Below are positions 17,105 to 63,799 of a DNA stretch of 64,000 nt, piece after piece; within the stretch, counting starts at the first letter, position 1; the number at the start of each line of letters is the position of its first letter. The notes beneath the pieces were generated by a model, which saw nothing but the letters and a program-made list of their open reading frames with translations, made no database searches and was not told the origin of the DNA. The translations under genes and the position numbers were made by a program. Source of the DNA: Streptomyces griseiscabiei (GTDB taxonomy: Bacteria; Actinomycetota; Actinomycetes; Streptomycetales; Streptomycetaceae); assembly GCF_020010925.1 (NCBI RefSeq), contig NZ_JAGJBZ010000006.1:186001-250000 (forward strand), in the 5' to 3' direction.

Positions 17105-17164
17105 TCTTTCCTTTCGAAGGGTGCGATGTCGTGTGTGGCCGGGTGCGTGGTCGGGTGCGGGTGG

Positions 17165-17240: not shown

Positions 17241-17255
17241 CCGAAGACGGAACGC

Positions 17256-38864: not shown

Positions 38865-38884
38865 CAATTCCCATGTGGGCGAGG

Positions 38885-50520: not shown

Positions 50521-50781
50521 CTACTTCCCGGTCGTCGCCGACCAGAGGGTGACCGCCAGCGCCGTGCACGAGGTCAGGGCGGCCAGGGACGGGAGGGGCC
50601 AGCGGGAGCGTTCCAGGGTGTCCAGACGGTCCTCGTGGTCGGAGAGGGTCTTGTCGGTCTGGTCGGCTCGCTGGAGGAGGAGGGCGAGGTCGCCGCGGGT
50701 GGTGGCGAAGCCGACGTCCACGGCGCGGCGCAGGCGCTCCAGCTCCAGGGCCACGGTGGCGCGTTCGTCACTGCTCACCAT
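50521..50781 (-). CDS. Small coiled-coil holin-like protein
   Basis: The 86-residue protein has an N-terminal helical part with heptad character (ALELERLRRAVDVGFATTRG, then LLLQRADQTDKTLSDHEDRL) and a C-terminal membrane helix (LPSLAALTSCTALAVTLW). This is the plan of phage XhlA-type and similar lysis accessory proteins. It overlaps the holin gene by 14 bases and is last in the tail operon. A role in lysis or particle release is inferred from position. Confidence 0.68.
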   Translation of the reverse strand: MVSSDERATVALELERLRRAVDVGFATTRGDLALLLQRADQTDKTLSDHEDRLDTLERSRWPLPSLAALTSCTALAVTLWSATTGK

Positions 50782-51004
50782 CGGCGCCCCCTTCGGGCTC
50801 GCGTCGCCTCAGCCAGCCGGGCAGCAGGCGTTCCACCGAGGGCAGCGACATCAGCCGGCTCAGCGCCGTGGCGGCGGCCACGAGGGTGGCGCAGAAGGGG
50901 AGTTCGGCGACCCCGGGGGTGTCGGCCAGCAGCGGGACGGCGGCGGCCACCGCCAACAGCGCCTGGAACGCCGTACGCAGGGCTCTGCGGTTCGAGTCGG
51001 TCAT
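50768..51004 (-). CDS. Phage holin-like membrane protein
   Basis: The 78-residue protein starts at ATG 51004. Two hydrophobic segments (FQALLAVAAAVPLLA and FCATLVAAATALSRL) are followed by a basic tail (LPGWLRRREPEGG). The size and layout fit actinophage holins, which pierce the membrane to let the amidase reach the wall. It lies right after the amidase gene. Confidence 0.75.
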   Translation of the reverse strand: MTDSNRRALRTAFQALLAVAAAVPLLADTPGVAELPFCATLVAAATALSRLMSLPSVERLLPGWLRRREPEGGADGEQ

Positions 51005-51024
51005 GGTCGGTTCACGGGGTCCTT

Positions 51025-51888
51025 TCAGGTGCGGGGGACGCGGAGCTTCGCCCAGCTCGTGGCGCCGGGGACGCCGTCCGCGTCGGTGCCGGAGTAGCCG
51101 AGCTTGTGCTGCCAGGCGGCGTAGGAGCGGCGGTCGGCGGCGGTCCAGGACGGGCCGGGGCCCACCTCGTACCGGCCGCAGCCCTCGGCGACCAGCCGTC
51201 TGCCCATGGCGGTGACGATCGCGCTGCGGCGGCCGGTGGTGAAGAACGCGGCCCCCGGGAAGGGCTCGTAGGAGCCCGGGGCAGGACGGGTGCCTCCGGT
51301 CGGCGCCGCGCCGAGGCGGTTCGCGATCCGTGTGCGCATGCCCGCCATCGAGAACGTCGGGTCGATCTTGCGGGTCGTCCACTCCTTGTGGCCGATGACC
51401 CGGCCCGCGCTCCAGCCGTGGGCGCGGCACACCGCCGCCGCGACCCTCTCCACCGCCGCCAGCTGTGCGTCGGGGTACGGGTCGCGGCCGTTGCCGAGGT
51501 TCTCGATCTCGAAGCCGTAGAAGTGGGCGTTGCCGTCGACCGCGTCCGCGCCGGGGCGGGAGGGGATCGTCGTCGTGTTCCGTACGGCGTTGTAGGTGGC
51601 CGTCGCGCCGCGGCCGGCGTGGTTGGTGCGGCCGTAGCCGACCAGGTGGACCGTGCCGTCCTTCGCGATGACCGCGATGCACAGGGGGCCCGGGAGGTTC
51701 GTCATGCCGGCGCGGCACAGGGCGACGCTGTCGCGGCCCGCCGTGTGGTGCAGCATCACGCCCTGCGCCGGGCCCCAGGCGCCGACGGTGTTGCGGTTGT
51801 GGGTGGACCAGCCGGTGTGCTCGTCGAGCGTGACGCCTTCGGCGCGCAGGGCCGCCTCGAACGCGGCGGCGGAGAGGGGTGTGGCCAT
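51025..51888 (-). CDS. N-acetylmuramoyl-L-alanine amidase (endolysin)
   Basis: In this 287-residue protein, residues 30-190 are an Amidase_2/PGRP zinc domain with MLHHTAG, YGFEIENLGNG and VIGHKEWTTRKIDP, giving the His ligands and the catalytic Lys/Asp region. Residues 225-285 are a peptidoglycan-binding module (TAADRRSYAAWQHKLGYSGT, GVPGATSWAKL). No signal peptide is present, so export needs the holins. It cuts the amide bond between MurNAc and L-Ala. A strong terminator lies upstream, so it may be expressed separately from the fibre genes. Confidence 0.9.
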   Translation of the reverse strand: MATPLSAAAFEAALRAEGVTLDEHTGWSTHNRNTVGAWGPAQGVMLHHTAGRDSVALCRAGMTNLPGPLCIAVIAKDGTVHLVGYGRTNHAGRGATATYNAVRNTTTIPSRPGADAVDGNAHFYGFEIENLGNGRDPYPDAQLAAVERVAAAVCRAHGWSAGRVIGHKEWTTRKIDPTFSMAGMRTRIANRLGAAPTGGTRPAPGSYEPFPGAAFFTTGRRSAIVTAMGRRLVAEGCGRYEVGPGPSWTAADRRSYAAWQHKLGYSGTDADGVPGATSWAKLRVPRT

Positions 51889-51916
51889 GGGGTTGAGGTC
51901 CTTTCGGGCAGAGGAA

Positions 51917-51957
51917 AGCCCCGGTGCGCCGCGAGGGAAGCGCGGCGCACCGGGGCT
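51917..51957 (-). terminator. Terminator between fibre and lysis genes
   Basis: A perfect 17-bp stem (AGCCCCGGTGCGCCGCG with its reverse complement) over a seven-base loop. It lies after the fibre gene at 52010 and 29 bp before the amidase start, separating structural from lysis genes. Confidence 0.88.
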
Positions 51958-52009
51958 GCGGTGAACGGGATCGGTGGGTGGGATCGGTGGGTGGGATCAG
52001 TGGGCGGGG

Positions 52010-52666
52010 TCAGTGGATCGGGTCGATCCTGATGAAGCGGTTGTCGTAGGCGACGGTGTTGGCGGTGGGGGTGGCGACGGAGGACCAGTAGGTCGGGGTC
52101 GCCGAGTACACCGTGCCGGGCGTGAGGCCCGTGACGAGGAACTGGCTGGAGACCGAGGAGCGGTCGGTGTTGTAGACGTTGGCGGCCCGGTCGATCGTGG
52201 ACGCCAGGTACACCGAGCCGTCCGAGACCTTCCTGACCGTCGCGCCCATGTACCCGTTGGCGGCGACCGAGTTGTGCATCCAGCAGCCCACCGTGACGAT
52301 CACCCGGCCCGTCGCCGGCGCAGTGAAGGCGGCCACCACCGGGTCGCCGGTCGCCCCCGACAGGGTCTCGGCCGGGGTCGTGGACGTCGTCGTACCGGCG
52401 TCGTTGTTGAAGAGGAACACCGGGACGGCGGCCACCGGCAGCCACCCCGCGCCGGTGTAGTGGGTGAGCTGGCCGGGGGTGTCGAGCCAGGCGACCATGC
52501 CGCGGACCGGGGTGGTGACCGCCGCGTCACGGGCGGCGGCGGTCGCGTGGTGCAGGATCGTGCGGCCGTCCACGGCCTCCGCGAGGGACCGCACGTGCAG
52601 GGGGATGTCGGCCGTGTCCGTGGGCTGGGGGTAGGGGAGGCCGTTGAGGGGTGTGTAGGCGGTCAT
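52010..52666 (-). CDS. Tail fibre / receptor-binding protein 1
   Basis: The 218-residue protein begins MTAYTPLNGLPYPQPTDTAD, and its first 75 residues match the second fibre protein at 59954 closely (shared PLxGLPYPQPTDTA, VDGRT, GMVAWL and the HYTG/YYTG motif). The rest is a different beta-rich domain (VVAAFTAPATGRVIVTVGCW, SSVSSQFLVTGLTPGTVYSA). The shared part is probably the particle-binding foot and the distal part binds the target cell surface. The start overlaps the preceding gene's stop by four bases. Confidence 0.72.
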   Translation of the reverse strand: MTAYTPLNGLPYPQPTDTADIPLHVRSLAEAVDGRTILHHATAAARDAAVTTPVRGMVAWLDTPGQLTHYTGAGWLPVAAVPVFLFNNDAGTTTSTTPAETLSGATGDPVVAAFTAPATGRVIVTVGCWMHNSVAANGYMGATVRKVSDGSVYLASTIDRAANVYNTDRSSVSSQFLVTGLTPGTVYSATPTYWSSVATPTANTVAYDNRFIRIDPIH

Positions 52667-52971
52667 GCCGTCTCCGTCTCTGTTTCCGTCTCTGTTTCCG
52701 ATTCCGCGGCGTCGGGGTCGGCCTCCTGGTCTTCCTCGGGCTGTGGGGTGCCGGGGTCCGCGCCCGCCGGGCCGGTGGCGGGTGTCGGCTGGACGACGAC
52801 CTCCTCCGGCTCGTCCGGAGTCTCGGGGGACTCCGGCTCTTCCGGCTGCTCCTGCGGCTCGGGCAGGGTCACCGTCACCTCGGCGGGCCAGGCGATGCCG
52901 GGCCCGGGGGCGATGTCGTCGACCGGCTCCGCCGCCGGTTCCGGTGCCGGCTCGGGCGTCGTCTCAGACAT
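52663..52971 (-). CDS. Acidic Pro/Glu-rich tail-operon protein
   Basis: The 102-residue low-complexity protein is made mostly of Pro, Glu, Asp, Thr and Ala, with EPAPEPAAEP at the start and alternating ETETETETETA at the end. It has no fold that I recognise. It is coupled on both sides (eight-base and four-base overlaps) between the tail-tip and fibre genes, a place where phages often keep a linker or assembly protein. The function is unknown. Confidence 0.68.
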   Translation of the reverse strand: MSETTPEPAPEPAAEPVDDIAPGPGIAWPAEVTVTLPEPQEQPEEPESPETPDEPEEVVVQPTPATGPAGADPGTPQPEEDQEADPDAAESETETETETETA

Positions 52972-55324
52972 ACGCGGACTCCTTCAGCTCGCCGTAGGTG
53001 AACCCGGCGGCGGTCAGCGCGCCCAGGGTCGGGAAGGCCGCGGTCAGCTGCGCGTACGTCGACAGGGTCACCACCACCGGGTCCGCCGGGGTGTCCGGGG
53101 TGAGACCGGTGTCGGAGGGCGTCCCGTTGGGCTGGGTGCCGCGCAGGGTGAGCGTCTGGCGTACGCCACCGTCCGCGACGGCCGTCGTGTTCACCCCGAT
53201 CACCCAGGCCAGGGTGTCCAGCCGGGTGCCCGAGGTGTCGGTGAGCCGGACGACGTCGCCGAGCTGCACACGCGGGTCGTACAGCACCTCGACGTCACCG
53301 ATCACCGGCACCGGGTACTGGCCGGCGTCGTGGAGCGCGTCGGCGATGCCCTGGGCCGAGGCCAGGTCCTGGATCCAGTCCGTGGTCTCGCCGGTGTGCT
53401 CCTGACGGCCGTAGAACCGCTCGCTGTCGGTGTTCGGGACGTAGGCGGTGGCCGGCCGTTCGACAGGGTCCGCCTTCGGCTTCAGCGTCATCAGGAAGAC
53501 GGACGGCGTCCCGGTCTTGGTGGCCGTGTACAGCGGCTGGGCGGTGCGGTTGCTGAACCGCACGACCAGATAGCCGTCCTCACGGCGGGTCAGCACGTCG
53601 ACCGCGCCCTTGACCGCCGTCGTGCCGGCCGCGGTGGTCGCGAAGCGGACCTGGGAGCCCGCCGTGACCACCGAGTCGTCGTCCGAGGTCGGCGGACCGA
53701 TGTCGAACTCCTCCTCCGCCATCACGTACGACACCGTCAGCGTCCCGTTCGCCGGGATCGTGCGGACGACCGTGTCGGTGTACGTGGTGCCGGCCGCGGC
53801 CCCGAAGTCCTCCCACACCTTGGCGGGCTGGACGACGTAGTTGCGGCAGGCGTCGATCTCCTCCGTGAGGGTCAGCGAGGCGATGTCCCGGACCGAGGTG
53901 AGCGTGAGGTCGGCCTCGGTGGGCGGCGCGCCGAACCGGGTGTGGTTGCGCCACCGGAAGATGCCGCGCTCGTCGAACTCGGCCGTCGACATACCGGCCT
54001 TGGCGATCTGCCCGATGGCCTCCCACTGCGATCCGGAGACCCGGGGGATCGCGTACAGCGGGAGGATCGCGTCATCCAGCTGGGCGCCCTTGGTCCAGGT
54101 GCCGGTCTGCGCGAAGACCGCCGACGTCGGCATGCCCGACAGCCCGCTGGTGAGCTGGACGCCCTCCACGGCCATGTCGGTGGTGAGCTTCAACTCCCGC
54201 AGCTCGGAGGCGTACTGCAGCCCGTAGGTCTCGACGTACGTGCCGACGCCGCCCAGGTAGTGGGTGCCGTCGGGGCCGGTCAGCCGGGGCTGCACGGTCG
54301 GGTAGACCGAGGTGCCGGTGGAGCCGGTGGTGTCGAACAGGGCGCCGATGTGCCACGGTCCCTTGAGGCCGCGCACCCCGGGCCAGTACCACTGGAAGTA
54401 CCAGTACGCGCCGTCCACGGTCGCCGAGACCATCCGTACGGTGCCCTCCGCGAAGTTCACCTCCATGCGCAGCGAGCCGCGCGCGGTGCCGGTGCGGTCC
54501 AGCAGGAGTTCCAGGGTGACCGTGTCGCCGGGGCCGAGGGCCGGGTTGACCCAGGCCTCCGCGAACAGCCTGGTCCCGGGCACGGTGACCCGGGAGCGCG
54601 GGAACCAGCTCGCGGTGACCCCGGTCTGCTTCGGCAGCAGCGCCATCTCGTGCGGGGCGCCGTCCCGGGTCCAGGAGTACGCGGACGCGGGCGGCAGCAC
54701 CTCCGGCTGGCCGTACGGCGCGGCGAAGCCGCCGTGCAGACTCGCGTGGACCAGGGTCAGCGGCTGGCCCTCGACGAAGCCCGGGTGGCGGGCCGGCGGC
54801 GCGGTGAGCACGCCCGCCTGGCGCAGCAGCTCGTCCACGCACCAGGTGGCGGTGGCGACCGGCCGCCCGTAGTTGAACCCGGCGTACGGCTTGGGCAGTT
54901 GGGCCGGGCCGCGCAGCCGCTCGGCGCCGTCCAGCGCCGTGAGCTGCACGGTGTCGGTGCCGGCCTGCGCGGAGCGGGAGCGGACGGTGCCCCGGAAGGC
55001 CGGCAGGGTGCTCGGGCCGACCCCGCCCCGGTGCACCACGGACTGCCCCGGGCGGGCGAGGTCGCCGGTGGTGTGCAGCGCCCAGGGGGCGTACAGCTCG
55101 GGCGCCGACACCCCGCCCCTGCCGGACAGCTGCACCTGGAGCTGGGCGGCGGAGGAGCCGGAGAAGGCCCGCATCGCGGCCGGCAGGTCGGTCGCGTACG
55201 TCCGCTCCAGCTGCCACGACTGGACCTGCGCGGAGACGTCCTTGCCGCCGAGGCGGGTGGTGTGGACGGTGGTGCGCTCACCGGCCGCGAGCGCGGACTC
55301 GGTGGCGTCGTCAGCCTGCTGCAC
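52964..55324 (-). CDS. Tail-tip / minor tail protein
   Basis: The 786-residue protein starts at GTG 55324, overlapping the distal-tail gene by 14 bases. Residues 10-150 resemble a tail-tip base (ERTTVHTTRLGGKDVSAQVQ, then TDTVQLTALDGAERLRGP). A central beta-sandwich near 270-390 looks like a LamG/jelly-roll carbohydrate-binding part (GSLRMEVNFAEGTVRMVS, WHIGALFDTTGS). Residues 560-720 return to gpD/Tal-like sequence (VEVLYDPRVQLGDVVRLTDT). The position after the distal tail protein and before the fibre fits the Tal protein of siphoviruses. No glycanase or peptidase motif was seen. Confidence 0.78.
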   Translation of the reverse strand: MQQADDATESALAAGERTTVHTTRLGGKDVSAQVQSWQLERTYATDLPAAMRAFSGSSAAQLQVQLSGRGGVSAPELYAPWALHTTGDLARPGQSVVHRGGVGPSTLPAFRGTVRSRSAQAGTDTVQLTALDGAERLRGPAQLPKPYAGFNYGRPVATATWCVDELLRQAGVLTAPPARHPGFVEGQPLTLVHASLHGGFAAPYGQPEVLPPASAYSWTRDGAPHEMALLPKQTGVTASWFPRSRVTVPGTRLFAEAWVNPALGPGDTVTLELLLDRTGTARGSLRMEVNFAEGTVRMVSATVDGAYWYFQWYWPGVRGLKGPWHIGALFDTTGSTGTSVYPTVQPRLTGPDGTHYLGGVGTYVETYGLQYASELRELKLTTDMAVEGVQLTSGLSGMPTSAVFAQTGTWTKGAQLDDAILPLYAIPRVSGSQWEAIGQIAKAGMSTAEFDERGIFRWRNHTRFGAPPTEADLTLTSVRDIASLTLTEEIDACRNYVVQPAKVWEDFGAAAGTTYTDTVVRTIPANGTLTVSYVMAEEEFDIGPPTSDDDSVVTAGSQVRFATTAAGTTAVKGAVDVLTRREDGYLVVRFSNRTAQPLYTATKTGTPSVFLMTLKPKADPVERPATAYVPNTDSERFYGRQEHTGETTDWIQDLASAQGIADALHDAGQYPVPVIGDVEVLYDPRVQLGDVVRLTDTSGTRLDTLAWVIGVNTTAVADGGVRQTLTLRGTQPNGTPSDTGLTPDTPADPVVVTLSTYAQLTAAFPTLGALTAAGFTYGELKESAYV

Positions 55325-56150
55325 CGGACACCTCCACGAGGTCGAGGCTGAAGTTGCGGAACGGGAGCGGCCGGCCGGGGGTGTCGCTGTAGCCGGTCAC
55401 GGACATCGGCGGCAGCCCGTCGCCGGGGACGCCGTCCGCCGCCGTACCGCCGTAGGTGAGGCAGGCACCGGCGAGGGAGTAGGTGCCCGCCGTGCCCGGC
55501 TTGGCGGTCGGGGTGACGAACGCGGCGCCGGCCGGGACGGTGCCGGTGACCAGCGGGCCGGTGGCGGAGACCGTGCTGAGGTAGGTGCCGGTGGGCCCCT
55601 TGAAGTCGAGGCCCACGCTCTCCGTGGCGAGCGCGGCGATCGCGGTCGGCGCCTGGAAGGAGACCTGGAGGCCGGGCGCGACCGGGAAGTTGCCGACGGT
55701 GCCGGCGCAGCGCCAGGCCAGGGCGCTGTTGACGTCCGCCGCGGTGAAGGTGAACGTGCCGGGGGCCGTGAGACTCTCGGTGACCGCGCCGGTCGAGGTG
55801 GTGAACCACTGGGCGAGCCCGGTGATGTCGGTGGCCTTGGCCGTGCCCCGGCCGAGGGCCTGGGCGGCGGTGAGGACGTTGCCGGAGGCCGGGTCCACGA
55901 GGAACACGGTCGGCGCGAGCGAGCTGTCCACGCGCCGGGCGATCCGGTCGAGCGCGCGGGCGTGCGCCGGCGGCAGCAGGTCCCAGGCCAGCTTGACGCG
56001 GCGTACGGGCGCGAGGTTGCGGGTGACGGTGACCCGGCCGCCGAGCGACTTGAACTCGCTGACGCCCAGGTCGGCGGTGCGGTCGAAGGACTTGGCGGCC
56101 TGATCGATCTCGTACATGGAACCGGGCGGGCCGATCCACAGGTTTCCCAT
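55311..56150 (-). CDS. Distal tail (Dit-like) protein
   Basis: The 279-residue protein starts at ATG 56150 after AGGGGAC; the longer upstream frame lacks a ribosome site. It begins MGNLWIGPPGSMYEIDQAA, then KSLGGRVTVTRNLAPVRRVKL, as in actinophage minor tail proteins that follow the tape measure. The C-terminal half is beta-rich and ends with PFRNFSLDLVEVSG. The role is to form the hub joining tube and tip. The name is inferred from gene order. Confidence 0.72.
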   Translation of the reverse strand: MGNLWIGPPGSMYEIDQAAKSFDRTADLGVSEFKSLGGRVTVTRNLAPVRRVKLAWDLLPPAHARALDRIARRVDSSLAPTVFLVDPASGNVLTAAQALGRGTAKATDITGLAQWFTTSTGAVTESLTAPGTFTFTAADVNSALAWRCAGTVGNFPVAPGLQVSFQAPTAIAALATESVGLDFKGPTGTYLSTVSATGPLVTGTVPAGAAFVTPTAKPGTAGTYSLAGACLTYGGTAADGVPGDGLPPMSVTGYSDTPGRPLPFRNFSLDLVEVSGAAG

Positions 56151-56240
56151 GATGTCCCCTGGTGGGTGTGGGCGGGCGGGCGGATGGGCGGTTGCGGGCA
56201 TGAAAAAAGCCGATGGCGGCGGACTGCCGAATGCCATCGA

Positions 56241-56276
<36 letters not shown>

Positions 56277-56318
56277 GTCGGGTCGTCGGCGGCGGTGCTG
56301 CCGGGCCCCGGTGTGCGG

Positions 56319-57377
56319 TTACCGTCGGGCGAGCTGCCGCTGGCCGAGGAACACCGCGCGGGCGATCTCCTGGGAGTCGACCTGGATGACGACGGGCCGG
56401 TCGGCGAGGCGCTCCACGGCGGAGGCGAGGGTGCGCAGGCCCCCGCCGGAGCCGAGCATCCGCTCCAGCTTGGAGAGCGGGATGACGGCCTCGTGCTCAC
56501 CGGCCTCACCGAGCAGCGCGAGCGTGCCGCCGGAACGGGCCTGCACGATGCCGCCCTTGGCGAGCTGCGGGACGGGGAGCGTCGGCAGGTTGAACTGGAA
56601 CCCCTTGCCGCCGATCACCGGCACCCAGTCCGGCACCTTGATCTTGACCCGGTTCAGCGAGCCGATCAGCGCGTTCAGGCCCCGGATCAGCATCCGCGAC
56701 GGCAGCATGAACCCGTTGACGACGCCCTTGAACAGCGGCCCGAGCATCTTCGCCGCCGACGACGAGGCGCTCTTGATGGCGCTCCACGCGGCGACGAGCC
56801 CGCGCTTCACCAGGGCGGCGACCTTGTCCATGTTGACGAACTGGGCGATCAGCGGACCGAGCAGAGTCATGATCAGCCCGAACGGACTCGCCGCCATGGC
56901 CAGGTTCAGCCCCTTCTGAGCGAGCGAGGCCCCCTTGAGCCCCTTGCCCAGGCTGCCCATCGACTTCCCGCCCTTGTCGGCGTTCTTCCCCGCCCTGCCG
57001 ACGGACTTCTCGACGGCGTCGGCCTGCTGCTTGACGCCCTGGAGAGCGGTCTTGGTCTTGTCGGCGGACGACTTGAGCCTGTCGAGCGAGGACTTGAGCC
57101 GGTCGCTGCCCGTCCTCGCCTTTCCGACCCCGGTGTTGACCAGGCCCGCCTGGGACTTGAGTCTGCCGAGTGAACCGTCCAGCTTGTCCGTGCTGCCCTT
57201 CGCCTTCAGCAGGGCGGAGTCGACACCCGCGGCGGACGACCGAATCCTGCTCACCGCACTGTTGGCCCCGCCCGAGGAATCCTTGAGACCCTTCAATCCG
57301 GATGACGCCTGAGTGACTGCGGTGCGCATTCTCGTAAGACTTGAATGGGCCGAATTAATCGATTTGGTGAGGCTCAT
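56319..57377 (-). CDS. Short tail tape-measure protein
   Basis: In this 352-residue protein, residues 1-150 are a Ser/Lys/Gly-rich helical repeat (LKGLKDSSGG, RLKSSLDRLKSSADKTKTAL). Hydrophobic helices follow near 155-205 (NLAMAASPFGLIMTLLGPLI), and then a typical tape-measure C-terminus with QLAKGGIVQARSGGTLALLG and EHEAVIPLSKLERM. Tape measures set tail length at about 1.5 angstroms per residue, so this protein would specify a tube of only about 50 nm. Most actinophage tape measures are two to five times longer. The start is ATG 57377 after GAGGAG. Confidence 0.85.
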   Translation of the reverse strand: MSLTKSINSAHSSLTRMRTAVTQASSGLKGLKDSSGGANSAVSRIRSSAAGVDSALLKAKGSTDKLDGSLGRLKSQAGLVNTGVGKARTGSDRLKSSLDRLKSSADKTKTALQGVKQQADAVEKSVGRAGKNADKGGKSMGSLGKGLKGASLAQKGLNLAMAASPFGLIMTLLGPLIAQFVNMDKVAALVKRGLVAAWSAIKSASSSAAKMLGPLFKGVVNGFMLPSRMLIRGLNALIGSLNRVKIKVPDWVPVIGGKGFQFNLPTLPVPQLAKGGIVQARSGGTLALLGEAGEHEAVIPLSKLERMLGSGGGLRTLASAVERLADRPVVIQVDSQEIARAVFLGQRQLARR

Positions 57378-57399
57378 TTTTTTCGTTTCTCCTCAGAGT

Positions 57400-58128
57400 C
57401 TAGCCGAGGGATTCGGAGAGCTGGCGGACGCTGTTCTTGAGCTCGTTCTGCCTCTGCTTCAGCCCTTCCAGGGAACTGGTGATCTTCTTGACGCTCTCAT
57501 CGGTCTCCTTCTTCGCCCGTTCGACCTGCTTCTCCTCGCTGTCGGCCTTCCGCTTCTGCTCCTGGATGGCCTGGAGGGTCCTGTCCAGCTTCTTCTTCTG
57601 TTTCTCAGCCTCCGTGTACGCCTCGCGGGCCAGTTTCTCGGCTCGCACCGCCTGGTCGGTGAGGAGTTTCGCGGACGTGGAGAGGTTGCCGCCGGCGCCT
57701 CCGGGGGAGCTGTTCGCCGCCGCGGCCGTCCGATTGGCGAGACGCAAGGTGTCGGCGGCGGTCTCATAGCGACGCTCGGCGGTCCTGAAGGCGCTCTCCG
57801 CCCGCAGGACCTTGGCCTCCAGCTTCCTGTCGCCGCGTTCCTCGTCGTCCCGCGCGTGCGGCCAGATGAACTTCTGCCGTCCCAGGAACGAGATGCCCTT
57901 CTCGTCGATCTTGAACGCCGTGAAATCGGCCTTGAAGAGCGTGAGACCGAGAGCCACGCCGGCGATCGCCGCCTTCGCGCCCTCCAGGTCCGCCTTGAGA
58001 CCGGTGACCGAATGGCTCGCTCCCACGGCGATTTTCTTCACCCACTGACCTTCGTCCTGGGTGAAGTAGGTGTTCACGCCGAGGAATTTTGCGGGATCAT
58101 CCCCGGTCGCATACTTTGCGCCTGCCAT
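57400..58128 (-). CDS. Coiled-coil tail-operon protein
   Basis: The 242-residue protein starts at ATG 58128 with GGAG upstream. The first 90 residues are mixed (GQWVKKIAVGASHSVTGLKA, VALGLTLFKADFTAFKI). Residues 110-240 are a long charged coiled coil (KLAREAYTEAEKQKKKLDRT, EEKQVERAKKETDESVKKI). It ends 22 bp before the tape measure. It may be a separated N-terminal piece of a longer tape measure or a tail scaffold. I recognise no named family. Confidence 0.7.
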   Translation of the reverse strand: MAGAKYATGDDPAKFLGVNTYFTQDEGQWVKKIAVGASHSVTGLKADLEGAKAAIAGVALGLTLFKADFTAFKIDEKGISFLGRQKFIWPHARDDEERGDRKLEAKVLRAESAFRTAERRYETAADTLRLANRTAAAANSSPGGAGGNLSTSAKLLTDQAVRAEKLAREAYTEAEKQKKKLDRTLQAIQEQKRKADSEEKQVERAKKETDESVKKITSSLEGLKQRQNELKNSVRQLSESLG

Positions 58129-58230
58129 AACGCAGTCTCCTCTCCTGATGGTGTATCCGAAGGTTGTCCGGCGGCGATGACCGCGCTAGTGTGCTGCTCC
58201 CTGACTGTCACGCCGGGAAGGGGTTCGACT

Positions 58231-58641
58231 GTGCATCCGGCCATCTGGATAGTTGGAATTCTGGCTATTTCTCCTCTCCTTTTCCTGCCGTTCGCCTCGT
58301 GGCCGCTCGTCGTCCGAAGGAATCTGCGCCGACGTGGTGTCACGGTCCCAGGGAAATGCGTACGTGTCGTCTCGGACGAGGGCGCCTATTTCTCTGTCTA
58401 CGAGTATTCGCCGGAAGGGCAGGAGAAGCGCCTGCGAGGCCGGACCGAGGGACGCGGCTGGCCGTTCGCCGACGAAGGGGACGAGGTCGAGGTCATCTAC
58501 GACCGTTCCGATCCCCGGAGTTCACGGCTGTCGGTGGAACTCGGCGATGTCACCGGCTGGCGTTTCGCGACTTATTCGATCATCGCCTGGCTCGTTCTCT
58601 TCGTACCGCTGGAGATATACACCGTCATCTACTACGGCTGA
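58231..58641 (+). CDS. DUF3592-type membrane protein, probable moron gene
   Basis: The 136-residue protein starts at GTG 58231 after GAAGGGG. Two membrane helices, one at each end (AIWIVGILAISPLLFLPF; FATYSIIAWLVLFVPLEIYT), flank an external or cytoplasmic beta domain with VSDEGAYFSVYEYSPEGQ and GDEVEVIYDRSDPRSSRL, the DUF3592 pattern. It is transcribed against the tail operon, which it interrupts. Base composition is lower in GC than the flanks. The function is unknown. Confidence 0.75.
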   Translation: MHPAIWIVGILAISPLLFLPFASWPLVVRRNLRRRGVTVPGKCVRVVSDEGAYFSVYEYSPEGQEKRLRGRTEGRGWPFADEGDEVEVIYDRSDPRSSRLSVELGDVTGWRFATYSIIAWLVLFVPLEIYTVIYYG

Positions 58642-58711
58642 TGAGCCGGAGCGCCTGTGCGCCTGTGCGCTGTGCCGGAATGATTTCGCACACGACCTCA
58701 AACACCTTGCG

Positions 58712-58740
58712 GTGAAATGTACTTACTTCACAATTTACAT
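58712..58740. promoter_or_regulatory. AT-rich dyad upstream of the second rightward gene
   Basis: GTGAA at 58712-58716 and TTCAC at 58727-58731 are inverted, and ATGTA at about 58717-58721 matches TACAT at 58736-58740. The segment is much richer in A and T than its surroundings. It looks like a repressor site and promoter for the gene at 58893. Bases 58642-58892 hold no other supported gene. Confidence 0.45.
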
Positions 58741-58892
58741 GCGTGACGGACACAGCTTCGTCGAGTATCCTCCGCTTGCCCGAAACTCGCTGGTCAGTGT
58801 CGCTTTAGCGGAGAGGTGGCGAGAGGGCACCGGTTCTGCCGGTACGGGGATGAAGTGGCCTTCTTCGGGAGGCGGCGTGACGGGGGTAGTGC

Positions 58893-59339
58893 GTGGACGG
58901 GGAGCGCGGTACGGAGGTTGAGACGGGCGGGGCGGCTCCGGAGGTGGATGTCGCGTTACTCGTCGACGAGTTGGTCAGGCTGGTGCGGGCGCACGGCGGA
59001 TCGGAAGTCGTGCTGTTCACCGCGGCCGAGATGGAACGGCGGGAGTTCGCCGCCTATGCGCATGGCTGGAACGATGCCCTGGCGTCGTTGCCCGCGCAGT
59101 TGCGGCGGCCCGAACTGACGCTGCTGGAAGGCGGCGTGATCATTCCCTTTCCGGGGGAGCCGGACGCCGGCGATGCCGAGGGCGCCGGACAGGGGGTGGC
59201 CGGGAATCCCGCCCCACCGCCCCGGAAACGGCGGCCCCGATTCGTCGAGAAGAGCGCTCGATCGAAGTCGCCGACCATCCCGAAGCTCGAACGTGGGTCA
59301 TCCCGGCGGCCGGACCGCCGGGATTTTTTTGACCACTGA
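58893..59339 (+). CDS. Small protein of a tail-linked family, copy 1
   Basis: The 148-residue protein starts at GTG 58893. Residues 15-75 are helical with LFTAAEMERREFAAYAHGWN, shared with the convergent gene at 59439 (TEIEKREFKAYGQGW). The tail is basic and Pro-rich (PPRKRRPRF). The last codons run through a T-rich terminator hairpin at 59302-59328, which is unusual. I do not recognise the family. It is one of two rightward genes interrupting the tail operon. Confidence 0.65.
   Translation: MDGERGTEVETGGAAPEVDVALLVDELVRLVRAHGGSEVVLFTAAEMERREFAAYAHGWNDALASLPAQLRRPELTLLEGGVIIPFPGEPDAGDAEGAGQGVAGNPAPPPRKRRPRFVEKSARSKSPTIPKLERGSSRRPDRRDFFDH
59302..59328 (+). terminator. Classical terminator with T-run
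   Basis: CCCGGCGG and CCGCCGGG form a stem over CCGGA, followed by ATTTTTTT. A T-tract of this length is rare in Streptomyces and typical of phage or imported genes. It overlaps the last 12 codons of the gene before it. Confidence 0.88.
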
Positions 59340-59438
59340 CATGTGTGGCCGCCGCCGGACCGTGGACGCGTGTGCGTCCGTGTGCCGTTCGCTCGGCTCG
59401 CTCGGTTCGTTCCGTCCGCTCCGTCTGCTCCGTCCGCT

Positions 59439-59813
59439 CTACAGGTCGTCGTCCGACGGGTGGGGGCGGGCGGACGGCGGGTGCGGGTGCGGATGGGGGT
59501 GCGGGTGTGATGGCGCGGCCGGCGGGGGCGTCTGCTGCGGGAACGGCAGGATCTTGCCACCGGGGTCGCGGTGGGGTGGCGCGCCGGGGCTGCGCAGGGC
59601 GGCGGACCGGCGGCGCTGGTCCTCGTGCTCGCCCCGGTCCCGCCAGCCCTGCCCGTACGCCTTGAACTCGCGCTTCTCGATCTCGGTCCGGGTGGTGACG
59701 ACCAGGTCTGCCGGGACGGCCCGTTGCATGCGTACGGCAAGGACCTGTCGCAGTTCGGCCTCGGCCCTGTCCAGCTCGACGCCGCCCCACGGCTCGCCCT
59801 CGTTGTTCGTCAC
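59439..59813 (-). CDS. Small protein of a tail-linked family, copy 2
   Basis: The 124-residue protein is given the start GTG 59813 after a GGGGAGTGGGGG stretch. The helical core VTTRTEIEKREFKAYGQGWR matches copy 1 across the convergent gap. The C-terminus is Pro-rich with a His-Pro run (HPHPHPHPHP) that could bind metal, and it ends in SDDDL. The function is unknown. The gap 59340-59438 holds a run of CTCGGTTCGTTCCGTCCG-like imperfect repeats. Confidence 0.65.
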   Translation of the reverse strand: MTNNEGEPWGGVELDRAEAELRQVLAVRMQRAVPADLVVTTRTEIEKREFKAYGQGWRDRGEHEDQRRRSAALRSPGAPPHRDPGGKILPFPQQTPPPAAPSHPHPHPHPHPPSARPHPSDDDL

Positions 59814-59953
59814 TCGGCCCCCACTCCCCGCAGACTTCACACACATGCTTCGAACATATGCTCGATAACACCTCGCAGAATACCCGAAGTGCCTGTGGTG
59901 GCCAGGACAAAACGGAGGCGGTTCCCGGCCACCTCGCGCCGTCCGGCCGCGGC

Positions 59954-60604
59954 TCACGCGACCTCGTACGAACCCCCGATGCGGATGACGTTGCCGTTCG
60001 CCCAGGCCGCGCCCAGCACTCCGCCGGAGCCGAGCTGGGAGAGATGGGAGGTCGAGGTCGCGGCCGGGCCCCACAGGGTGTAGGTCGTCGCGTTGGTACT
60101 GGCGGCCGGCTGGCAGCTGATCACCGCGCGGCCGTTCGGGCTGGTCCCCACCCCCTGGTGCTGGGGCAGCCCGCCCAGCGCGCCCGCCTGGACCGGGTAG
60201 GAGAGGTGGTAGTTGCCGCTGCCGTACGTCGTGGTGGACCCGAACTGCATGAGCAGCGTGAAGTGGCAGGTCCTGCCGACGATCGCGTACTTGCCGGTCA
60301 GACTGCCGTTGCCGATCGCCGGGTTGGTCGTCTCGGCCGTCCAGACCGGGGTGTACGCGGTCCAGGCGCCCATCGCCACCCACGCCGAGCCGGTGTAGTA
60401 GCTGAGCGTGCCGGGGCTGGTCAGCCAGGCGACCATGCCGGTGGCCGGGGTGGTGATCGTGGCGTCCCGCTCGGCAGCGGTCGCGTACCGCAGGACCGTA
60501 CGGCCGTCGACGCCCTCGGCCAGGGACTGGAGGTGCAGGGGGATGTTCGCGGTGTCGGTGGGCTGCGGGTACGGCAGTCCGCCGAGGGGCGTGTGGAGGG
60601 TCAT
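59954..60604 (-). CDS. Tail fibre / receptor-binding protein 2
   Basis: The 216-residue protein starts at ATG 60604. Its first 75 residues match fibre 1 (PLGGLPYPQPTDTANIPLHL, GMVAWLTSPG) and the remainder is unrelated: WTAYTPVWTAETTNPAIGNG, then TGKYAIVGRTCHFTLLMQF and GSGNYHLSYPVQA, a beta-rich pattern seen in phage fibre heads. It sits 7 kb from fibre 1, between the chaperone and the small protein genes, so the operon carries two alternative binding heads on one kind of foot. Confidence 0.72.
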   Translation of the reverse strand: MTLHTPLGGLPYPQPTDTANIPLHLQSLAEGVDGRTVLRYATAAERDATITTPATGMVAWLTSPGTLSYYTGSAWVAMGAWTAYTPVWTAETTNPAIGNGSLTGKYAIVGRTCHFTLLMQFGSTTTYGSGNYHLSYPVQAGALGGLPQHQGVGTSPNGRAVISCQPAASTNATTYTLWGPAATSTSHLSQLGSGGVLGAAWANGNVIRIGGSYEVA

Positions 60605-60624
60605 GGGACGGGATCACTCCTCGG

Positions 60625-61092
60625 TCAACGGAAGAACTGGACGAGTTCGACGGCCGACGGATTCCGTACCGGCTCGGCGGCCGAGGTCGCCGGCGACGAC
60701 GCCGACGACGGCGGTGGCCCATCGGCCGACGGGGGCGACGCGGTGGCCGACGGCTCCGCGTCCCCGGGCAGCGGGCGCGGTACCGGCGTCGGATAGTCCA
60801 GCGGGTCCGCGTCCTCGTCCCGGTTCACCGTGGCGAACATCCAGTTCGCCTCCGCGAGCTGGTCGACGACGGACGCCAGCAGATGGTCGGCGACGGACCA
60901 GTGAGCGGCCTCGCCGTGGAGTTCCTGGAGGGTCGCGCTGTCGCGTGGCAGATGCTTCACCAGCACCGCGAGCCGGCGGGAGGAGAGCCGGCCGCGGTGC
61001 CAGTCGAGCAGGTCCACGCCGTAGTGGCGGAGCAGGTCCGCTTCGAGGGCCTCGGCGTGTTCGTCGACGAACTCGCCGAGGCTCAGCCTTCC
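60625..61092 (-). CDS. Tail assembly chaperone, frameshift extension (gpT-like)
   Basis: This frame has no ribosome site of its own at its upstream end and reads from the slip site: GRLSLGEFVDEHAEALEADL, then RHYGVDLLDWHRGRL and LAVLVKHLPRDSATLQ, typical of the C-terminal half of actinophage tail chaperones. It ends in a Pro/Ser-rich tail at 60625. GTG 61017 could start a shorter form. It should be made as a fusion to the upstream 95-aa protein by -1 frameshifting. The long form probably binds the tape measure during tail assembly. Confidence 0.75.
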   Translation of the reverse strand, partial: GRLSLGEFVDEHAEALEADLLRHYGVDLLDWHRGRLSSRRLAVLVKHLPRDSATLQELHGEAAHWSVADHLLASVVDQLAEANWMFATVNRDEDADPLDYPTPVPRPLPGDAEPSATASPPSADGPPPSSASSPATSAAEPVRNPSAVELVQFFR

Positions 61093-61370
61093 CCCAGGCC
61101 GAGCCCGGTCTCCTTGCCGTACGCCTCCATGATCGCGGCGATGTCCTGCATGGTGACGTCGAGACGGTCGAAGCGCTCGAACTGGGCGTCGCCCAGCAGC
61201 GCGCGCAGCAGACCGTCCACGTCGTTGTCGTCGAGGTCGCGCAGGGTGCGCGCGGTCTTGCGGGACAGCTCGGTGGGGAGCGTGAAGGTGTCCCCCTCGA
61301 CGGTGAAGGACCAGGCGCGACCGAGCGCCTCCTGCCGCTGGGCACGGGCGGCGCCGACGTCGAATGCCAT
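61083..61370 (-). CDS. Tail assembly chaperone, short form (gpG-like)
   Basis: The 95-residue protein starts at ATG 61370 after AGGAG. It contains FTVEGDTFTLPTELSRKTAR and DVTMQDIAAIMEAYGKETGL, the usual form of the short chaperone next to the tail tube gene. It ends at TGA 61083, directly after the slip site GGGGGAA. The short form coats the tape measure before tube assembly. Confidence 0.8.
   Translation of the reverse strand: MAFDVGAARAQRQEALGRAWSFTVEGDTFTLPTELSRKTARTLRDLDDNDVDGLLRALLGDAQFERFDRLDVTMQDIAAIMEAYGKETGLGLGEG
61089..61095 (-). other. Slippery site for -1 ribosomal frameshift
   Basis: On the coding strand the heptamer is G GGG GAA (0-frame codons CTG GGG GAA GGC TGA). Slipping back one base gives GGA AGG CTG AGC and opens the 155-codon extension. 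Slippage at this point in the tail chaperone pair is conserved in lambda-like and actinobacterial siphophages. The A-site re-pairing (GAA to GGA) is imperfect, so single-tRNA slippage on GGG may be what happens. Confidence 0.68.
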
Positions 61371-61434
61371 GGAACGACTCCTCTTGGTGTGGTGGAGATT
61401 GATGCAGATGGGTGGAGAGGGACGTGCGAGAGGT

Positions 61435-61478
61435 ACCGGGCGGGGCCGGGGGAGGGGGAGGTCCCGGCCCCGCCCGGT
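61435..61478 (-). terminator. Hairpin after the tail tube gene
   Basis: ACCGGGCGGGGCCGGG pairs perfectly with CCCGGCCCCGCCCGGT over a 12-base loop, 14 bp past the tail-tube stop. It probably lowers read-through into the chaperone genes, so that the tube protein is made in excess. Confidence 0.8.
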
Positions 61479-61491
61479 GGGGGAGGGTGGA

Positions 61492-62070
61492 TCAGGAGGC
61501 GGTGCCGTACGCCGGGTCCTTCATCAGGAAGGTGGCCAGCGGCTTGGTGTTGTCGACGGCCAGCGCGGTGAAGGTGACACCGAGCTTGATGGAGGCCGTA
61601 CGGGTCAGCGACAGTTCCTCGGTCTCGGTGACCTGGCCGCGCGAGACGACGAAGCGGTACGTGATGTCCGTACCGTCGCTGAACTCGATGCCCATCGCCT
61701 TCTCGTTGAACTTCGGGTCGGCGGCCAGCTCGTACTTGTAGACGCCGGAGCCGGTGGTGGTCTCCGCGACGGCGTCACCGCCCATGAAGAACGGCAGCGT
61801 GTCCTCGTTGAGCTGGAGCAGCTGGAACTTCACCGTCAGGTCGCGGTCCGAGTAGATGAACCGGGCCGGGGAGACGGACTGCCAGGTCTCCACCGGGTCG
61901 AGCTTGTCCTTCTTCGCCAGCTTGATGCCGTCCTGCGAGGTGTAGCCGAGGTCCTTCCAGCCGGACCCCCACGCGGAGGTGACATCGGTCGGCGCGGTCG
62001 TCCCGACCGGGGCGACCAGAATCCGCCCGGTACCGGCGACACGGATCTCGTTGGCGTTGCTGCCTGCCAT
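61492..62070 (-). CDS. Major tail tube protein
   Basis: The 192-residue protein has the fold of siphovirus tube proteins: IRVAGTGRILVAPVGTTAPT, then SAWGSGWKDLGYTSQDGI, IYSDRDLTVKFQLLQLNE and GTDITYRFVVSRGQVTETEE. The C-terminal half holds the expected beta strands with Thr-rich ends. The tube would be built of stacked hexamers, with length set by the tape measure. The start is ATG 62070. No second (sheath) protein follows, so the tail is non-contractile. Confidence 0.85.
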   Translation of the reverse strand: MAGSNANEIRVAGTGRILVAPVGTTAPTDVTSAWGSGWKDLGYTSQDGIKLAKKDKLDPVETWQSVSPARFIYSDRDLTVKFQLLQLNEDTLPFFMGGDAVAETTTGSGVYKYELAADPKFNEKAMGIEFSDGTDITYRFVVSRGQVTETEELSLTRTASIKLGVTFTALAVDNTKPLATFLMKDPAYGTAS

Positions 62071-62107
62071 GCGTACTCCTTGGGAGAGAGGAAAGTGAGG
62101 GGTACTG

Positions 62108-62165
62108 CCGCGCCCTCAGGGGCGCGGGGAACTGCGCGATCAGCCACGAACGACCCGCACCCGCG
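62108..62165. repeat. Palindromic repeat family, copy I (partial)
   Basis: CCTCAGGGGCGCGGGGAACT, then GCGCGATCAGCCACGAACG. A right-arm-only copy in the gap between tail terminator and tube genes. It shows that the repeat family has also entered the phage-derived region. Confidence 0.85.
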
Positions 62166-62217
62166 AACCGGCCTGCCCGACCGAGCTCATAGGCGGACCG
62201 GCCCCCGAGGCGGAGCC

Positions 62218-62625
62218 CTACGCGGGGCGGATGTGCAGTCGGACCGTCGCGTAGTAGCGATTGGCCGCGGACCGGTTCCAGTCCGGCAGCCAGCGGGGTC
62301 CGTCCGCCTCGACCACGTCGGAGACGACCGCGCCCCCGTACGTCGCCCCCCGCAGCGCGAGCACCGCGGAGCGGACCGTCAGGGCCAGCGTGTGCGCCGC
62401 CGTCTTGGTCGGCCCGTAGACCTCCAGGTCCACGAGCGGCTGGTCGAGGTGCAGGTCGTCCACCCAGGCCCCGCCGGCGCGGGAGACCAGGACGACCCGC
62501 TGGGTGCCGTCGAACCCGCCGGGCGGCACGTTGTCCACGGTCGCGGTGGAGAGTTCGGGGCGGTCGGTCAGGAAGTCGACGACGAGTCGTTCGACATCCG
62601 GGAAGGTGACCGTCGGTTCGGCCAC
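62218..62625 (-). CDS. Tail terminator-like / head-tail joining protein
   Basis: The 135-residue protein starts at GTG 62625 after GGGAGG. It reads PDVERLVVDFLTDRPELSTA, RVVLVSRAGGAWVDDLHLDQ, VDLEVYGPTKTAAHTLAL and then a strand-rich end, the pattern of the small proteins encoded just before the tail tube gene in siphophages (gpU-like). It would cap the tube. It is the first structural gene of the operon, with an untranslated leader of about 100 bp containing the shared dyad. Confidence 0.72.
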   Translation of the reverse strand: MAEPTVTFPDVERLVVDFLTDRPELSTATVDNVPPGGFDGTQRVVLVSRAGGAWVDDLHLDQPLVDLEVYGPTKTAAHTLALTVRSAVLALRGATYGGAVVSDVVEADGPRWLPDWNRSAANRYYATVRLHIRPA

Positions 62626-62715
62626 GGTGAGACCTCCCTTCTTGGTCGGAGGTATGCGAAACGGCGGGGCCGTGTCCCTGGGGGCACAGCTCCGCCGCTG
62701 CACCAACTGTGACAC

Positions 62716-62733
62716 GTTGCGAGCGCGCGCGCA
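62716..62733 (-). promoter_or_regulatory. Dyad element upstream of the tail operon
   Basis: On the operon strand the site reads GTTGCGCGCGCTCGCAAC followed by GTGTCA. The arms GTTGCG and CGCAAC are inverted. A related site precedes the regulatory unit at 63922-63941. It lies about 90 bp before the first tail gene and just after the preceding terminator, so it is likely the promoter/operator of the tail operon. Confidence 0.6.
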
Positions 62734-62765
62734 ACTATGAGTTTGTCGGGACCCCAGGAAACGCA

Positions 62766-62803
62766 CATCGCCCCGTCACACCGAGTGGTGTGACGGGGCG
62801 ATG
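62766..62803 (-). terminator. Terminator closing the regulatory unit
   Basis: A perfect 17-bp stem, CATCGCCCCGTCACACC with its reverse complement, over GAGT, 8 bp past the HTH gene stop. It isolates the regulatory unit from the tail operon. Confidence 0.92.
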
Positions 62804-62810
62804 AGGTGCC

Positions 62811-63041
62811 CTAGCCGCGCCGCCGATTGCCGCCCCCGCGCCCCCGCGTGGCCCGCTCCGCCGCGAACACGTCCTCCAGCCGGTAGAGATGGGTCCGCCC
62901 CTGCCGCCCGGCGGCCTCCAGGTGGCCCAGCTGAACCCATTTCCGTACGGTCGCGGGGGCCACGCCCGCCTCCGCCGCGGCGGCGGCGCCGGTCACCAGC
63001 GTGGGGGACGAACCGGTCGGCCCCGCCAGGGAGTTGCCCAT
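62811..63041 (-). CDS. Small helix-turn-helix protein (excisionase/MerR-like)
   Basis: The 76-residue protein starts at ATG 63041, overlapping the upstream stop by one base. It holds an N-terminal HTH (LVTGAAAAAEAGVAPATVRK, then WVQLGHLEAAGRQGRTHLYR) like phage excisionases and MerR-type winged helices, with a very basic Arg/Gly tail. It is probably a DNA-binding regulator acting at the two dyads. Confidence 0.78.
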   Translation of the reverse strand: MGNSLAGPTGSSPTLVTGAAAAAEAGVAPATVRKWVQLGHLEAAGRQGRTHLYRLEDVFAAERATRGRGGGNRRRG

Positions 63042-63799
63042 CAGGCGGCCCCCGCCTCGGCCGGGCCGTCGCACTCGTCCGCGTCGTCGACCAGCGCGGC
63101 GATCTCGTCCGCGTCGGCCCCCGAGTCCGCCGCGAGCTGCGCCCAGCCGGTCTCCGTCCAGCTGTGCCGGTGGGCGGCGTTGTCCGCGCACGGGCACTCC
63201 TCGTCGGCGCACCGGCACCCCGGGTTGACGCACAGGACCGTACGCCAGGCCGGCATGGCCCGCAGCGACACCGAATCGCACCACGGGCAGCGGCCGTTGA
63301 CGCGGACCAGGGTCTCGGGGTCGCCGAGGGTGCGGCCGCAGCGGCGGGCCATCCGGCGGCACTCGTCGAGGACGTGCCGGGCCAGGACCGGATGCCCGGC
63401 GACGTCGTCGAGCAGCGCGGCGATCCGGCCCAGCCGCCGCGGCACGTCCGCGCGCGGGGGGCGGCCGAGCCCGAGCTTCTCCCGGACCGCCTCCTCCAGT
63501 TCGACCACCCCGTCGGTGACGTCCCGTACGGCGTCGGAGACATGGAGGCGGATCGGGGCGGTGCCCGCGCCCAGCGGGGCGAGGCCGTGCTGCTCGCCGA
63601 GCAGGGCCTCGGCGCGCTCCGCGGCGTCCCGTTCGCCGAGGGCGCGGAGGGCGGCCGGGCCCAGTGGCGGGCGGGAACGGGTCCCGCCGCCCGGTCGGCC
63701 CGGGGCCAACTCCTGGAGCAATTCAGGGAATTGGCGGCGCAGGATGTCGATCCAGCGGGCGGCGCGGGCGGTGTGCTGCGCGGCGAGGCCTGAGGACAT
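63041..63799 (-). CDS. Cys-rich phage protein of unknown function
   Basis: The 252-residue protein starts at ATG 63799, ten bases after GGAG; ATG 63826 is an alternative. The N-terminal 140 residues are helical. The middle has a Cys/His cluster (CPWCDSVSLRAMP, then CVNPGCRCADEECPCADNAAHRH) that should bind one or two zinc ions, and the end is acidic. Proteins of this kind occur beside structural genes in Streptomyces prophages; no function is known. It is first in a two-gene unit with the HTH protein, with a matching dyad upstream. Confidence 0.68.
   Translation of the reverse strand: MSSGLAAQHTARAARWIDILRRQFPELLQELAPGRPGGGTRSRPPLGPAALRALGERDAAERAEALLGEQHGLAPLGAGTAPIRLHVSDAVRDVTDGVVELEEAVREKLGLGRPPRADVPRRLGRIAALLDDVAGHPVLARHVLDECRRMARRCGRTLGDPETLVRVNGRCPWCDSVSLRAMPAWRTVLCVNPGCRCADEECPCADNAAHRHSWTETGWAQLAADSGADADEIAALVDDADECDGPAEAGAA

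What the first reader, a model, noticed from the sequence alone, without database searches (positions are those of the whole stretch)
50521..63799. Headless siphovirus-type tail operon, possibly an F-type tailocin-like particle
Gene order is tail terminator, tube, frameshifting chaperone, tape measure, distal tail, tail tip, fibre, amidase and two holin-like genes. No capsid, protease, portal or terminase gene is present within the window. In phages, head-tail connector and capsid genes normally lie directly before the tail terminator. Here that place is taken by a regulatory unit closed by a perfect 17-bp terminator, and the tail operon seems to start from its own promoter region. The tail set is complete for building and releasing a non-contractile tube. 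This suggests a domesticated bacteriocin or signalling particle in Streptomyces.
Basis: partly seen in the sequence, partly recalled or inferred. Interest (0 to 1): 0.78.

Follow-up and report, generated by a model that had tools for sequence, protein, structure and literature searches.

The report
Headless phage tail with swappable cargo
Streptomyces bacteria carry a long-conserved, headless phage-tail gene cluster in which one exchangeable gene pair looks like a delivered effector and its matching immunity protein, which suggests how such tails may harm rivals and spare their maker.

Summary
Window 50521-63799 (minus strand) encodes a complete non-contractile tail without head genes; none were found to the right, and the own genome has no TerL or portal match.

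It is not a stray tail. The tip protein is full-length in 13 of 247 Streptomyces genomes. On the tip tree, 42 headless loci form one clade beside 10 prophages, 9 with homologous capsid, protease and connector. The headless clade has a shortened tape measure, shared chromosomal sites and purifying selection.

E and I families match independently of the tail phylogeny (partial Mantel 0.49, 0 of 2000; ARI 0.59, 0 of 5000). Near-identical tails carry unrelated E/I with sharp junctions.

Best reading: an F-type tailocin-like particle with exchangeable effector-immunity cassettes. Headlessness and conservation are shown; particle, delivery, killing and immunity are inferred.

The parts
63041..63799 (-). 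'reg': 252-aa zinc-ribbon-like protein, first gene of the regulatory unit
   Evidence: four cysteines invariant in 42 of 42 aligned sequences, 6 of which are duplicates; weak match to phrog_7575, E 2.5e-4; present in 12 of 12 relatives fetched by handle, in one of them inverted on the other side of the tail
62811..63041 (-). 'hth': MerR/excisionase-like DNA-binding protein
   Evidence: phrog_2474 E 7e-17
63922..63941 (.). operator-like dyad GTTGCG-N8-CGCAAC in the R641/reg promoter region
   Evidence: 2 exact matches in 64 kb, 0.02 expected, 0 of 100 shuffles with 2; also in other loci at this position
62716..62735 (.). same dyad in front of the tail operon
   Evidence: a dyad with identical half-sites and spacing is shared by both intergenic regions in 7 of 33 loci against 4 of 660 shuffles
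62766..62803 (.). 17-bp perfect inverted repeat, 4-nt loop, between regulators and tail operon (terminator-like)
62218..62625 (-). tail terminator, 135 aa
   Evidence: phrog_123 E 3e-23
61492..62070 (-). tail tube protein
   Evidence: PF25681 E 9e-67
61083..61370 (-). tail assembly chaperone, 0-frame product
   Evidence: phrog_10551 E 6e-25
61089..61095 (-). GGGGGAA slip heptamer for -1 frameshift
   Evidence: present with -1 offset in 40 of 40 loci
60625..61089 (-). chaperone -1-frame extension
   Evidence: phrog_5813 E 1e-26
59954..60604 (-). second fibre-like protein; N-terminus like fib2, different C-terminus
   Evidence: phrog_16452 E 3e-17; sequences printed
59439..59813 (-). conserved small ORF of unknown function
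   Evidence: same ORF in G218, G244, G103, L073, L074 and L091
58893..59339 (+). conserved small opposite-strand ORF of unknown function
   Evidence: same ORF in G103, L073, L074, L091
58231..58641 (+). gene I: 136-aa membrane protein with DUF3592, opposite strand; proposed cognate immunity/exclusion protein
   Evidence: PF12158 27.5 bits, cut-off 25.3; two TM-like segments, at its two ends; I families covary with E
57400..58128 (-). gene E: 242-aa hypervariable protein with C-terminal coiled coil; proposed tail-borne effector
   Evidence: E/I span is the lowest-GC 1.2-kb spot of the window, 0.629 against 0.722; the protein search found 2 relatives besides itself; E families are exchanged between near-identical tails
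56319..57377 (-). tape measure protein, 352 aa
   Evidence: PHROGs tape-measure families, best 1.8e-12; hydrophobic segment in 39 of 40 loci; 795-796 aa in 9 of 10 prophage relatives
55311..56237 (-). distal-tail-like protein (Dit position)
   Evidence: no family match; homologous to and syntenic with the prophage gene
52964..55324 (-). tail tip / hub with inserted lectin- or CBM-like sandwich (residues about 184-411)
52663..52971 (-). 102-aa acidic proline-rich protein
   Evidence: no family
52010..52666 (-). tail fibre (fib2)
   Evidence: phrog_16452 E 9e-13
51025..51888 (-). amidase endolysin
   Evidence: PF01510 E 7e-20; phrog_880 E 3e-64
50768..51004 (-). holin-like small protein
   Evidence: phrog_4316 E 7e-15 (unknown function), phrog_443 holin only 0.041; hydrophobic segment
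50521..50781 (-). small protein with a C-terminal hydrophobic segment, holin-accessory-like by position
   Evidence: phrog_5225 E 4e-25, unknown function

Best explanation
A chromosomal, domesticated, headless siphovirus-type tail particle (F-type tailocin-like). A Cro/C1-type repressor, together with a zinc-ribbon protein and a MerR-like protein, keeps it off. When derepressed, the operon builds a short non-contractile tube whose tip hub and fibres bind the surface of a related bacterium; amidase and holin-like proteins lyse the producing compartment to release it. Instead of DNA, the tube carries E with the short tape measure. E is exchangeable between strains and is proposed to act on the target on ejection. 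I, usually on the opposite strand and so outside the tail operon, is proposed to protect producer and kin. Shown: gene set, headlessness within the families searched, one headless clade, selection, frameshift site, shared operator dyads, E-I covariation and cassette exchange. Inferred: regulation, particle formation, release, delivery, E toxicity, I immunity.
For: Complete tail set. Own genome without PF03354 TerL (the control rings in 3 of 14 genomes) and without phrog_104 portal; portal absent in 12 of 13 headless genomes, the 13th (G150) has two on other contigs, both prophage control genomes ring. 42 headless loci monophyletic against 10 prophage loci. Tip in 0 of 50,697 phage and 0 of 72,556 plasmid records at E 0.01. 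dN/dS of core genes 0-0.61 in ten close pairs, apart from one 1.13 at dS 0.02 and two not computable. GC of E below the tip in 40 of 40 loci. E similarity is unrelated to tip identity (rho 0.03) but correlated with I (partial Mantel 0.49, 0 of 2000). Hand-curated E and I families: ARI 0.59, 0 of 5000. G121 against L094: 95.0-95.6% DNA identity up to chapB, no blastn match across I/E, 95.6% again from 187 nt inside the tape measure; homology also resumes 115-255 nt inside it in five other pairs. E covaries with the first 60 aa of the tape measure (partial 0.24, 0 of 1000), not clearly with the rest (0.08, 102 of 1000). G121 keeps an extra I 95% identical over 105 aa to that of L096. Prophage relatives lack the cassette: chapB-to-tape-measure gap -11 to +6 nt in 9 of 10 (L103, poorly matched, 857), against 902-5270 nt in 40 headless loci.
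Against: No particle, killing or toxicity data. E has no toxin-family match; its hydrophobic segment is weak (19-residue mean of 1.6 or more in 10 of 40, against 7.6% of shuffled E), and the N-terminal part of its AF2 model is below pLDDT 50. 5 of 40 loci have no clear opposite-strand I before E: L095 none, G103 a fragment, L077 none clear, L099 behind E, L112 on the same strand. The two largest E families share one I family at 40 bits; G218 carries an I unlike the others of its E family; L084 shares E but not I with L102 and L107. In family EC (6 loci) I is not a membrane protein. Permutations do not fully model shared ancestry. Some loci look damaged or incomplete: L100 and L112 short tips, L102 and L087 no clear tip start, L107 without tube and terminator match, L099 without amidase match. 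Only 13 of 247 Streptomyces genomes carry the full tip.
Confidence: 0.6

Rival explanations
1. Headless tail particle as above, but E is structural (a split or second tape measure, or a tape-measure partner) and I is a superinfection-exclusion protein aimed at incoming tails or phages, as HK97 gp15 is described (recalled; recalled also that gp15 sits between chaperone and tape measure).
For: E lies directly before the tape measure, has a coiled coil and covaries with its first 60 residues; 28 of 35 curated I have TM-like segments; tape measure of the prophage relatives 795 aa against about 240 + 350 aa here.
Against: A structural part should follow the tail phylogeny; E does not (rho 0.03), and unrelated E families sit in near-identical tails. 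Exclusion and immunity are mechanistically close, so this rival overlaps the main reading.
Confidence: 0.25
2. Headless particle used for the producer's own development or programmed lysis rather than against rivals, as proposed for Streptomyces contractile systems.
For: Published Streptomyces CIS are reported to act in the producer's cell death and life cycle (PMC10066040, PMC10020575; search listings and abstract starts only); the cluster lies in core chromosome, for example beside matAB.
Against: Fibres, a carbohydrate-binding-like tip insertion and lysis genes fit an exported particle; a matched hypervariable E/I pair fits conflict; 17 of 18 genes checked in frame have no TTA codon, the one with it being the small ORF 58893-59339, unlike the bldA-dependent CIS regulator (PMC8910223, passages read).
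Confidence: 0.08
3. Decaying prophage remnant that kept its tail.
For: A few loci look damaged or incomplete.
Against: One clade in many species with similar ORF lengths in most loci, dN/dS mostly well under 0.5, slip site intact in 40 of 40, shared insertion sites.
Confidence: 0.04
4. Tail module of a gene-transfer agent or satellite that borrows heads encoded elsewhere.
For: The short tape measure is in the range recalled for gene-transfer agents.
Against: Own genome: no PF03354 TerL, no phrog_104 portal, only weak hits of the phrog_212 capsid model (E 5e-6 and 5e-4, in 480- and 623-aa frames, against about 1e-89 in the two control genomes). Other TerL, portal and capsid families were not searched.
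Confidence: 0.03

Closest known systems
F-type tailocins (F-pyocins, monocin)
   Different: Lies in Streptomyces and Kitasatospora; very short tape measure; exchangeable E/I cassette. I know of no effector or immunity gene in F-type tailocins (recalled); [quoted passage not shown]
Sle1- and Tme-type effectors of Streptomyces contractile systems (PMC13277306: abstract, passages and one section read; PMC11126660: search listing and abstract start only)
   Same: Tape-measure-related coiled-coil cargo with a variable functional domain; one Micromonospora example has an adjacent protein that relieves its toxicity
   Different: Those sit in contractile clusters with a sheath; Sle1 has the coiled coil at the N-terminus and the functional part at the C-terminus, the reverse of what the E model suggests; here no sheath was found and E accompanies a separate tape measure
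HK97 gp15 superinfection-exclusion protein (recalled)
   Same: Small membrane protein encoded between tail chaperone and tape measure
   Different: Here on the opposite strand, DUF3592-like and family-matched to a second variable gene
Clade-B Streptomyces prophages (L104, L108, L111 and seven more)
   Same: Same tail order, homologous tube, dit and tip; terminator and amidase also in most
   Different: Head genes precede the tail (capsid, protease and connector homologues in 9 of 10; L103 has another capsid family); 795-796-aa tape measure in 9 of 10; no E/I; a primase downstream in L108

Membership tests
F-type tailocin | complete non-contractile tail gene set | tested here: met
   Dit by position and synteny only
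F-type tailocin | no head or packaging genes | tested here: met
   limited to the families and ORFs searched
F-type tailocin | own lysis genes | tested here: met
   amidase clear; holins only by position and hydrophobicity
F-type tailocin | maintained by selection rather than decaying | tested here: met
F-type tailocin | bactericidal headless particle observed | not testable with these tools
   needs microscopy and killing assays
contractile injection system / R-type tailocin | sheath protein | tested here: not met
   no sheath family among the operon proteins scanned
temperate prophage | capsid, portal and terminase next to the tail | tested here: not met
temperate prophage | integrase and attachment sites | not tested
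   no integrase among the few flanking proteins scanned; no dedicated search was run
gene-transfer agent | capsid and terminase in the genome | tested here: inconclusive
   one TerL, one portal and one capsid family searched in the own genome
effector-immunity pair | linked genes whose types match and move together | tested here: met
   exceptions listed under evidence against
effector-immunity pair | E toxic, I neutralises it | not testable with these tools
   needs expression assays
Sle1/Tme-type CIS effector | encoded in a contractile cluster | tested here: not met
   no sheath family found

The most novel reading that the evidence does not exclude
A non-contractile phage tail has been turned into a protein-delivery weapon: with the head lost, the tube carries, behind a halved tape measure, a modular effector that is swapped between strains as one cassette with its own immunity gene, giving eight E types (40-bit linkage, two of them single loci) on one conserved tail.
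Probability: 0.45. Interest if true: 0.87.

Novelty: new variant of a known kind. Interest (0 to 1): 0.77.

Why it matters
How F-type tailocins kill and how producers escape are open questions (PMC8910223, passages read, for the first). This lineage offers a natural experiment: near-identical tails that differ in a bounded cassette (G121 against L094), plus a sister clade of intact prophages showing what was lost and gained. If E is delivered, a phage tube can carry protein cargo without a contractile sheath. Ten literature searches listed no paper whose title or abstract start describes a non-contractile tailocin of Streptomyces; several lists were capped at 15 to 25 papers, and the library lacks preprints and most subscription journals.

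Tried and rejected
Considered and dropped: tmRNA as integration site (about 12 kb away, with a GH31 enzyme gene and matAB between); simple prophage remnant; carriage on known phages or plasmids; a helper head in the genome (one search had no positive control, hence). A bldA/TTA link was not found. The fibre showed only a mild N- to C-terminal drop in identity (0.64 to 0.54, n = 28), so it gives no strong host-range signal. The E model was too weak to search. The tip profile had no PDB sequence match. In a class-wide survey 5 of 394 genomes matched: own, one strong hit in another family (G463, not followed) and three partial. The operator dyad is exact in both regions in only 7 of 33 loci; other lineages have diverged or lack it. 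Rows dropped: two tip fragments (G154, G184); six named loci that I judged duplicates of handle genomes (L083, L086, L088, L093, L097, L106); L075 and L076 from the E/I counts because they are cut off before the chaperone. 'Bportal' in the scripts is in fact the protease gene; portals rest on L104 and the genomes of L108 and L111. Three E calls (G096, L077, G022) were corrected by hand.
Full report
WHAT IS THERE. The window is G000:C6:186001-250000 of a 10.6-Mb genome in 8 contigs; its nearest named relatives are Streptomyces, with tips 91-93% identical in S. adelaidensis and S. europaeiscabiei. The tail operon runs on the minus strand from 62625 to 50521 and holds terminator, tube, frameshifted chaperone, a variable block, tape measure, Dit-like protein, tip hub, a small acidic protein, fibre, amidase and two holin-like genes. 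Upstream lie a zinc-ribbon protein, a MerR-like protein and, divergent just beyond the window, a Cro/C1-type repressor (PF01381; phrog_3949). Further right come an AfsA homologue, a TetR regulator and an NRPS-type cluster, not head genes.

HEADLESSNESS. No match for TerL (PF03354) in the own genome. The portal family phrog_104 is absent in 12 of 13 headless genomes; G150 has two copies on other contigs; both prophage control genomes ring. The capsid model phrog_212 gave only weak hits (best per genome 7e-5 to 1e-7) in all 13, against about 1e-89 in the controls. Other head families were not searched.

RELATIVES. In 247 Streptomyces genomes the tube family PF25681 occurs in 77 and the tip in 15, of which 13 are full length including the own. 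All 12 others carry terminator, tube, chaperone with extension, tape measure, dit, tip, amidase, the second small gene and the three regulators around it. Among 45 named loci, 10 are prophages: homologues of the L108 capsid, protease and connector lie before the tail in 9 of the 10, and L103 has a different capsid family; a portal was identified in L104 and in the genomes of L108 and L111. The other 35 show no such genes, with flanks of at most 10 kb and several cut at contig ends. After removing 6 duplicates and adding the handle genomes, 42 headless loci form one clade against the 10 prophages (midpoint root; support 0.87 and 1.0 on the two sides of the root). IMG/VR gave 13 relatives, all of the prophage type: all 13 match the long tape measure, 12 carry capsid, protease and connector, none the regulatory unit. 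The tip is absent from the phage and plasmid records searched.

MAINTENANCE. dN/dS of core genes on ten close pairs is 0-0.61, apart from one 1.13 at dS 0.02 and two not computable; E, where related, gives 0.28-0.72 in five pairs. The slip site is invariant. 31 of 42 loci fall into six groups with shared flanking genes: matAB, a dnaK/hspR-type cluster, rpoC (two groups), a dcd-type neighbourhood, and one more; 11 could not be assigned, partly at contig ends. L073 is counted with matAB on one shared gene. Site names were read by eye from translated neighbours, except matB. The tape measure is 288-408 aa in the headless clade and 795-796 aa in 9 of 10 prophages (L103, weakly matched, 752).

THE CASSETTE. 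Between chaperone and tape measure 9 of 10 prophages have essentially no gap, while the 40 headless loci have 0.9-5.3 kb. In all 40 that could be scored there is a gene E directly before the tape measure, 155-257 aa as called. 35 of 40 have an opposite-strand gene I before it (hand-curated; analysed). E and the 500 nt before it are lower in GC than the tip in 40 and 39 of 40 loci. E forms seven groups in the automatic set and eight in the curated set. The smaller E families mostly go with their own I family (6 of 6, 3 of 3, 2 of 2); the two largest share a DUF3592-like family; G218 and L084 are exceptions. The match is far beyond permutation, although permutations do not fully model shared ancestry. 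E similarity is unrelated to tip identity (rho 0.03). In six close pairs DNA homology stops before I or E and resumes 115-255 nt inside the tape measure; the upstream border is at the end of the chaperone extension in two pairs, after further small genes in three, and after a retained I in one; E is unrelated in five pairs and a 34%-identical member of the same family in the sixth, G000/L074. So the exchanged unit is at least E with the adjoining I and the tape measure's first 40-85 residues. G121 retains a former I next to its new pair, as expected if protection against the old type is useful.

KNOWN SYSTEMS. It works like an F-type tailocin and meets the features tested; the particle itself is untested. 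The E idea is close to tape-measure-related CIS effectors (PMC13277306), one of which has an immunity partner, but those belong to contractile systems. A full-text search for DUF3592 together with 'immunity' gave no paper.

Noticed in passing
L080:2769-6451 (S. inusitatus): A headless locus carries an extra phage-type dit and tip (63% to the L108 prophage tip) inserted between chaperone and E/I; the inserted tip groups inside the prophage clade.
   Followed up: partly
window coordinates 67509-68597 (-) and 69097-69744 (-), in the right flank L003: AfsA homologue and TetR regulator, a butyrolactone-type signalling pair, beside an NRPS-type cluster that begins about 72.4 kb.
   Followed up: partly
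window 38466-38867 (+): tmRNA gene with tag ATIKSDSPQQQFSLAA; not used as an integration site by the tail cluster.
   Followed up: no
G108 and L109 loci (L087 is cut off): The regulatory unit lies inverted on the far side of the tail operon instead of directly upstream; these loci lie next to rpoC.
   Followed up: partly
G463:C1:21422-23587: A strong tip relative (E 9e-125) in a genome of another family of the class; head genes there not checked.
   Followed up: no
G031 locus 16238-16561 and 16885-17283: Two related I copies in tandem, one shortened.
   Followed up: no
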